A DNA stretch of 7,044 nucleotides from Bacillota bacterium. GTDB taxonomy: Bacteria; Bacillota; DTU025. Positions 2,246 through 2,857 of the stretch are shown one piece after another; positions within the stretch are counted from its first letter, which is position 1, and the number at the start of each line of letters is the position of its first letter. The DNA lies in assembly GCA_012842765.1 (NCBI GenBank), contig DUWJ01000384.1:1-7044 (forward strand). The letters are read 5' to 3'. The position numbers were made by a program, and so were the translations under genes. The notes under the pieces are model-generated. The model saw only the letters and a list, made by a program, of their open reading frames with translations. It was not told where the DNA came from and ran no database searches.

Positions 2246-2857
2246 ATGCAGGCTCGAATAGGTAAACCAGCTCCGGATTTCGAGACAGGGGCATTTGTTG
2301 CTGGTGAGTTCAAAAAAGTCAAACTATCAAACTATCGTGGTAAATGGGTTGTTCTATGTTTTTATCCGGGAGATTTTACATTTGTTTGACCTACTGAGCT
2401 GGCGGCGGTCGCCGTCAAGTATCCTGAGCTTCAATCCATGGGCGCGGAAGTGCTCGCGATAAGTGTCGACAGCAAGTTCAGTCACAAGATATGGCAAGAA
2501 ACTGAGCTATCGAAAATGGTTGCAGGCGGGGTGCCCTATCCGATCCTGGCGGATCAGGGTGGAAAGATTGGTACTCTCTACGGGGTTTATGATGAGGAAG
2601 CCGGTGTAAATGTCAGAGGGCGGTTCATAATCGATCCAGATGGAGTTATCCAGGCGATGGAGGTATTGACGCCACCAGTGGGCCGTAACGTATCTGAGCT
2701 TGTTAGGCAGGTAAATGCTTACCAGCATCATAGAGCCACCGGCGATGTCATGCCCTCTGGCTGGGAGCCTGGGAAGCCAACGCTCAAGCCAGGACCTAGC
2801 TTAGTGGGTCGGGTATGGGAAGTTTGGAAGCCCGAACAGGCCTTCGGTAAGCGCTAG
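2246..2857 (+). CDS. prxU: Selenocysteine-containing peroxiredoxin (AhpC/Prx type), UGA-recoded
   Basis: Peroxiredoxins reduce H2O2 and organic peroxides with a peroxidatic cysteine. Here one frame of 203 residues is interrupted only by TGA (2387-2389), exactly at that residue. The active site PGDFTFV-[UGA]-PTEL fits the family motif PxxxTxxC with P41, T45 and Sec48. Family matches continue on both sides: a start like IGKPAPDFETGAF, YRGKWVVLCFYPGDF, then SVDSKFSH, YPILAD, and VRGRFIIDPDG with the likely catalytic R124. A SECIS-like hairpin follows the TGA. Selenocysteine peroxiredoxins are known in some anaerobes, for example PrxU of Eubacterium acidaminophilum. Oddly, the C-terminal resolving-cysteine motif (usually GEVCPAxW) reads GDVMPSGW, with Met169. 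The only cysteine is C38, so reduction probably needs an external thiol. Normal length, strong ribosome binding site and uninterrupted homology argue against a pseudogene. A TGC-to-TGA mutation or sequencing error is the alternative. Confidence 0.9.
2387..2420 (+). promoter_or_regulatory. bacterial SECIS-like element with the Sec UGA codon
   Basis: Downstream of UGA (2387-2389) a 7-bp stem forms between UGGCGGC (2400-2406) and GCCGUCA (2411-2417), with one G-U pair, closing the tetraloop GGUC (2407-2410). The pairing can extend to C2399-G2419 over a bulged A. The apical loop begins 17 nt after UGA, inside the spacing known for bacterial SECIS elements. It starts with GG as SelB recognition requires, and matches the GGUC apical loop of E. 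coli fdhF, offset by one nucleotide. The element lies in the coding sequence for LAAVAVK, as is normal in bacteria. Folding was done by eye. Confidence 0.8.

What the first reader, a model, noticed from the sequence alone, without database searches (positions are those of the whole stretch)
2246..2857. Peroxiredoxin with selenocysteine (UGA) at the peroxidatic position
One frame from ATG 2246 to TAG 2857 is broken only by TGA 2387-2389, exactly where the catalytic cysteine of FTFVCPTE belongs. Homology is continuous on both sides. Stop-based annotation would give two false fragments and miss the N-terminal half. Known Sec-peroxiredoxins are rare and restricted to selenium-using organisms.
Basis: partly seen in the sequence, partly recalled or inferred. 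Interest (0 to 1): 0.9.

Follow-up and report, generated by a model that had tools for sequence, protein, structure and literature searches.

The report
Selenocysteine peroxiredoxin PrxU read through UGA
This gene encodes a peroxide-removing enzyme of the known PrxU family, and its catalytic residue is written as the usual stop codon UGA, which this bacterium is predicted to read as the rare selenium amino acid selenocysteine.

Summary
One frame, ATG 2246 to TAG 2857, is broken only by TGA 2387-2389, at the peroxidatic position of a peroxiredoxin (203 residues, Sec48). It passes the curated cut-off of NCBIfam PrxU (359 bits against 270). The same genome holds tRNA-Sec, selD (itself with an in-frame UGA), selA and the 5' part of selB on one contig. 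All 80 kept loci from named genomes have TGA at this site. The RNA structure is thus conserved beyond the protein code, as expected of a SECIS element. Less expected: the usual C-terminal resolving cysteine is absent (Met169), while a cysteine ten residues before Sec is present in 31 of 32 genes from the genome search, whose retrieval did not require it. It may be the resolving partner; that is untested.

The parts
2228..2236 (+). Shine-Dalgarno-like AAGGAGGTG before ATG 2246
   Evidence: read in the sequence; the same stretch is kept in the same-genus homologue
2246..2857 (+). prxU, selenocysteine peroxiredoxin, 203 residues; Cys38, Pro41, Thr45, Sec48, Arg124; Met169 at the place of the resolving Cys
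2357..2359 (+). codon of Cys38, ten residues before Sec48; the only Cys of the predicted protein
2387..2389 (+). in-frame UGA, predicted Sec48 (peroxidatic residue)
2398..2420 (+). predicted bacterial SECIS hairpin, apical loop GGUC at 2407-2410
   Evidence: fold; synonymous-shuffle test; third-position covariation

Best explanation
Window 2246-2857 encodes a PrxU-family peroxiredoxin whose peroxidatic residue is an in-frame UGA, predicted to be read as selenocysteine (Sec48), likely with the help of a hairpin just downstream and the Sec-insertion genes found in the same genome. Steps inferred from the family: Sec48, held by Pro41, Thr45 and Arg124, would attack H2O2 or an organic hydroperoxide and become a selenenic acid. 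The usual C-terminal resolving cysteine is missing (Met169), so the selenenic acid would be resolved either by Cys38, the only cysteine of the chain, as an internal selenenylsulfide, or directly by an outside thiol. Thioredoxin, with thioredoxin reductase (genes for both are present in this genome), would likely return the enzyme to the selenol. Shown here: frame, homology, conservation of UGA, conserved RNA hairpin, selA, selC, selD and 5' selB, conserved Cys38, absent resolving cysteine. Not shown: Sec insertion, activity, the resolving partner, the reductant.
For: PrxU equivalog model over its cut-off. UGA at the peroxidatic position in all 80 kept named-genome loci. Own genome: tRNA-Sec with anticodon tca, selD 379 bits, selA 474 bits, selB 5' part 315 bits, in the order selC-selD-selA-selB on one 10-kb contig. 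Hairpin pairs 15:30, 18:27, 21:24 rank 1-3 of 91 third-position pairs over 114 genes. The first 45 nt from UGA fold better than synonymous-codon shuffles: mean z -1.10 over 82 sites against -0.21 over 2296 control windows. Purifying selection on both sides of the UGA. TGA is a true stop elsewhere in this window: rnhC ends in TGA at 5254-5256. Thioredoxin and thioredoxin reductase genes on C478. AlphaFold model, mean pLDDT 93.3, matches typical peroxiredoxins.
Against: The window's own hairpin is not unusual on its own: z between -1.06 and +0.40 in the four stretches folded. 17 of 114 genes do not keep all three third-position pairs, and 8 of 114 lack GU at the loop centre. The shuffles do not correct for shared ancestry. 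SelB is seen only as its first 331 residues. No expression or mass-spectrometric evidence.
Confidence: 0.95

Rival explanations
1. A broken peroxiredoxin gene: the TGA is a recent nonsense mutation or a sequencing error.
For: The plain reading of a stop codon inside a gene; the assembly is fragmented (482 contigs).
Against: TGA kept in a second genome of the genus at high synonymous divergence, with selection on both sides, and in all 80 kept named-genome loci.
Confidence: 0.01
2. An alternative genetic code in which UGA is Trp throughout the genome.
For: 73 of 120 listed homologues in the protein set carry Trp at this place.
Against: rnhC in this window ends in TGA; a tRNA-Sec (tca), selA, selD and 5' selB are present; Trp cannot serve as the peroxidatic residue (established peroxiredoxin chemistry).
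Confidence: 0.01
3. It is PrxU, but Cys38 has a structural or tuning role, and the oxidised Sec48 is reduced directly by thioredoxin or a small thiol (a 1-Sec mechanism).
For: No C-terminal resolving Cys here and in nearly all of 114 genes (3 have it); position -10 lies at the end of a strand in the model (34-39); the NCBIfam name is 'thioredoxin-dependent peroxiredoxin'. Cys at -10 is kept in 22 of 42 Cys-form homologues as well, so it does not depend on Sec.
Against: Cys at -10 is the only Cys in 87 of 114 genes, from 50 residues before Sec to the end; the two genes that lack it have another Cys further on, as expected of a resolving thiol. Two cases are few, and some genes that keep Cys at -10 have a second Cys too.
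Confidence: 0.5

Closest known systems
Selenocysteine-containing peroxiredoxin (PrxU; this name for it is recalled) of Eubacterium acidaminophilum, Sohling et al. 2001; seen only as a reference in PMC13188914, PMC9312934 and PMC8533274, the paper itself is not held
   Same: Selenocysteine in a peroxiredoxin; two reviews list the motif as TxxU, and PMC13188914 gives PxxxTxxU, which this protein has at 41-48.
   Different: Another lineage; not compared residue by residue, because that sequence was not at hand.
NCBIfam NF040737, peroxi_PrxU, thioredoxin-dependent peroxiredoxin
   Same: 359 bits against a cut-off of 270, over residues 2-197.
   Different: No difference found that excludes it.
Typical 2-Cys peroxiredoxins / AhpC (human peroxiredoxin 2, Salmonella AhpC)
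   Same: Fold (Foldseek rank 1: 7kj1, TM 0.88/0.91, 46% identity); Pro, Thr and Arg of the active site (their roles recalled).
   Different: Sec instead of the peroxidatic Cys; Met169 instead of the resolving Cys; AhpC equivalog score 188.6, below its cut-off of 272.

Membership tests
PrxU (selenocysteine peroxiredoxin) | Score above the curated PrxU cut-off | tested here: met
   359.1 bits against 270
PrxU (selenocysteine peroxiredoxin) | In-frame UGA exactly at the peroxidatic position | tested here: met
   UGA at the same place in 80 of 80 kept named-genome loci
PrxU (selenocysteine peroxiredoxin) | Thioredoxin-dependent peroxidase activity | not testable with these tools
   Trx and TrxR genes are present in the genome; activity itself not measured
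Bacterial selenoprotein | Hairpin just after UGA with a small apical loop containing G | tested here: met
   loop GGUC, 17 nt after UGA (single-sequence fold not significant); covariation at synonymous sites; feature as stated in PMC1088965 (passages)
Bacterial selenoprotein | selA, selC, selD in the genome | tested here: met
Bacterial selenoprotein | Complete selB in the genome | tested here: inconclusive
   first 331 aa found, over the selB cut-off, cut by the contig end; SelB-wing_3 not found
Bacterial selenoprotein | Selenium in the protein | not testable with these tools
   needs 75Se labelling or mass spectrometry
Typical 2-Cys peroxiredoxin (AhpC) | C-terminal resolving cysteine | tested here: not met
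   Met169 where human peroxiredoxin 2 has Cys
Typical 2-Cys peroxiredoxin (AhpC) | Score above the AhpC equivalog cut-off | tested here: not met
   188.6 bits against 272

The most novel reading that the evidence does not exclude
PrxU is a peroxiredoxin class with its own resolving chemistry: Sec48 is resolved by Cys38, ten residues upstream at the end of the preceding strand, as an internal selenenylsulfide that thioredoxin opens, in place of the C-terminal resolving cysteine of its AhpC-like relatives.
Probability: 0.35. Interest if true: 0.6.

Novelty: new member of a known kind. Interest (0 to 1): 0.35.

Why it matters
It shows that the reading of raw sequence was correct, and gives a clean, testable case of UGA recoding with a comparatively supported SECIS element. 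It also shows how such genes go astray in public data: as a C-terminal stub (P0069) or, apparently, with Trp in place of Sec. The conserved Cys at -10 together with the missing resolving Cys makes a question testable: how a selenium peroxiredoxin is reduced without the usual partner.

Tried and rejected
Rejected: pseudogene, sequencing error and genome-wide UGA=Trp (see rivals). SelB-wing_3 gave nothing; the selB model then found the 5' part, cut by the contig end. Rfam on the window (E up to 1) gave tmRNA and two sub-threshold hits of no weight; none covers the hairpin. Single-sequence folding of the hairpin was not significant; the comparative tests were. A Cys-form control for the hairpin at DNA level stayed too small: 2 Cys genes among the loci held, neither with all three pairs.

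Counts mended on the way. Searches used 100 distinct genes because my script missed loci on the minus strand; one search repeats the count on both strands with 114 genes and gives the same top three pairs. The 114 were picked by a motif with a stop at the Sec site; that every one of those stops is TGA is a result, that there is a stop is not. The counts that left the Sec site open are 79 TGA, 1 TGT; the TGT was a second peroxiredoxin gene in L058 that overwrote its TGA gene; window 1 of 1 TGA; named loci 81 TGA and 1 TGT; unnamed 32 TGA and 1 TGC. A note says 43 Cys forms, 21 without Cys at -10; recounted it is 42 and 20.

The tree (143 rows: 100 Sec, 42 Cys, 1 outgroup) needs 10 changes between the labels (starred branches force at least 3 for Sec); the outgroup branch is long and the bootstrap had not settled, so I use it only to say that Sec and Cys seem to have switched more than once. 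The promoter and terminator scan found about what shuffles give. The rnhC search was meant to place the organism; see Noticed in passing.

Papers: seen as search listings and passages only, none whole. Searches; in the listings and passages that I saw, none treats the cysteine at -10 of PrxU; most subscription papers are not held, so this is no claim that it is unpublished. PMC10298544 (passages) calls peroxiredoxins non-selenoproteins, which does not fit the bacterial cases; PMC8533274 showed only the 2001 reference; PMC11327102 concerns human PRDX6 as a selenide carrier and was not used.

Full report
The sequence. Window 2246-2857 reads as one frame of 203 residues if TGA 2387-2389 is taken as a residue, and ends in TAG. 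AAGGAGGTG at 2228-2236 precedes ATG 2246 and is kept in the same-genus homologue. Read by stops alone the region gives ORFs 1955-2389 and 2438-2857; the public protein set holds a 139-residue C-terminal piece, 99% identical (P0069).

What the protein is. Pfam: AhpC-TSA, E 4.9e-39, and 1-cysPrx_C. NCBIfam: PrxU equivalog, 359 bits against a cut-off of 270; AhpC equivalog 188.6 against 272, not met. Nearest solved structures by sequence are 2-Cys peroxiredoxins such as AcePrx-1 and human peroxiredoxin 2; the UGA falls on their peroxidatic cysteine, and Met169 on their resolving cysteine. The AlphaFold model (28-row alignment, C for U; mean pLDDT 93.3, but 77 in the block 41-50 around Sec) matches human peroxiredoxin 2 first (7kj1, TM 0.88/0.91).

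Is the UGA real and conserved? In the own genome the gene is the only match. Among 41 genomes (the own and 40 relatives), 27 match; the 11 best places (282 bits and more) each carry one TGA. In a phylum sample, 205 of 398 genomes match a Cys-form PrxU query; 48 rows reach 249 bits and each holds at least one TGA; the rows from 190 bits down are mixed, mostly other peroxiredoxins, and where they hold a TGA its place was not checked. 30 of the 48 were fetched, and all 30 have the TGA at this site. Between the window and the same-genus gene (92% identical) 90 of 106 differences are at third positions; dN and dS are 0.067 and 1.82 before the TGA, 0.026 and 1.26 after it.

The machinery. tRNA-Sec at C430:6424-6516 (76 bits; ARAGORN: tRNA-SeC, anticodon tca); selD at C430:6696-7619 with an in-frame TGA at 6726; selA at 8031-9149; selB from 9260 to the contig end, 331 residues. 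SelB-wing_3 was not found, which fits the cut. The assembly is estimated 87% complete.

The hairpin. From the T of TGA as 1, bases 12-34 fold into a stem with loop GGUC at 21-24, -12.4 kcal/mol; on this sequence alone it is not unusual (z -1.06). Comparatively it is: at 82 UGA sites the first 45 bases fold better than synonymous-codon shuffles (mean z -1.10; 2296 control windows of the same genes -0.21; Mann-Whitney p 1.1e-13). On 114 distinct UGA genes from the 162 sequences held (161 loci and the window), the codon third positions 15:30, 18:27 and 21:24 form standard pairs in 88, 95 and 95% against 57, 73 and 75% in shuffles (0 of 1000 reach the observed value in each), and rank 1, 2 and 3 of all 91 third-position pairs. 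These are the three third-position pairs of the hairpin. Pairs change type together: 21:24 is A-U in 84 genes, G-C in 18, G-U in 3, U-A in 3. The loop centre is GU in 106 of 114; 97 of 114 keep all three pairs. A small apical loop with a guanosine, just after UGA, is the stated mark of bacterial SECIS elements (PMC1088965, passages). The shuffles do not remove shared ancestry; the rank among 91 pairs is a control with the same ancestry.

The cysteines. 112 of 114 genes have Cys at -10 (Cys38 here). At the resolving position are Thr 76, Met 27, Cys 3, Ile 3, Leu 2, Ala 2, unread 1. In 87 of 114, Cys at -10 is the only Cys from 50 residues before Sec to the end. The two without it (L035 first copy, L146) have another Cys at +123 or +131. 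Of 120 listed protein homologues, 73 have Trp at the Sec site, all 73 with Cys at -10; 42 have Cys at the site, 22 with and 20 without Cys at -10; 1 Arg, 1 Ser, 3 without the motif. So Cys at -10 goes with the PrxU type and is not exclusive to Sec forms. Position -10 lies at the end of strand 34-39 and Sec at the start of helix 47-64 in the model.

How it works. Inferred from the family: Sec48 attacks the peroxide, and the selenenic acid is resolved by Cys38 or by an outside thiol, then by thioredoxin. The genome has thioredoxin (C478:7946-8248) and thioredoxin reductase (C478:8634-9539, 371 bits against 343) close together. I hold the outside thiol slightly more likely than Cys38.

What is known. 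Selenocysteine peroxiredoxins are an established family: the enzyme of E. acidaminophilum is the reference cited for it (PMC13188914 and PMC9312934, passages); 43 genes in the Sargasso Sea set (PMC1088965, passages); a table of 2006 gives 12 (PMC1794560, table passage); one is named in Desulfococcus multivorans (PMC5109826, passage) and one was upregulated in ore-grown Sulfobacillus thermotolerans (PMC7409299, passage). The finding is therefore a new member of a known kind, correctly read from raw sequence.

Noticed in passing
L015 (own-genome contig C430) 6726-6728: selD of this genome has its own in-frame TGA, so the selenophosphate synthetase is likely a selenoprotein too; selC, selD, selA and selB stand in a row.
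   Followed up: partly
protein hits (P0002 and 72 others): 73 of 120 listed PrxU homologues carry Trp at the Sec position, probably because gene callers on short metagenome contigs read UGA as Trp; their DNA was not looked at.
   Followed up: partly
L035, TGA at 166 and 1165: Two PrxU genes stand close together in a Calditrichota contig; one lacks the Cys at -10 and has a Cys at +123.
   Followed up: no
window 2858-4293: About 1.4 kb without a recognised gene; two small minus-strand ORFs tested (3134-3508, 3481-3660) have no Pfam match; the second looks to me like a short pilin-type membrane peptide.
   Followed up: partly
window 5783-7044: A flavodiiron-type protein (ODP beta-lactamase fold plus flavodoxin), likely an oxygen or NO reductase, 3 kb downstream; its frame runs off the window.
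   Followed up: partly
window 1578-1928: tmRNA gene with tag ANDYAYAA, shortly after smpB (999-1475).
   Followed up: no
window 405-971: HD-domain protein between secG and smpB.
   Followed up: no
window 4294-5256: RNase HIII; the nearest homologue with a named organism in the list is from a 'Bacillota bacterium' (P0133, 60% identity), so the organism is perhaps an uncultured Bacillota lineage.
   Followed up: partly
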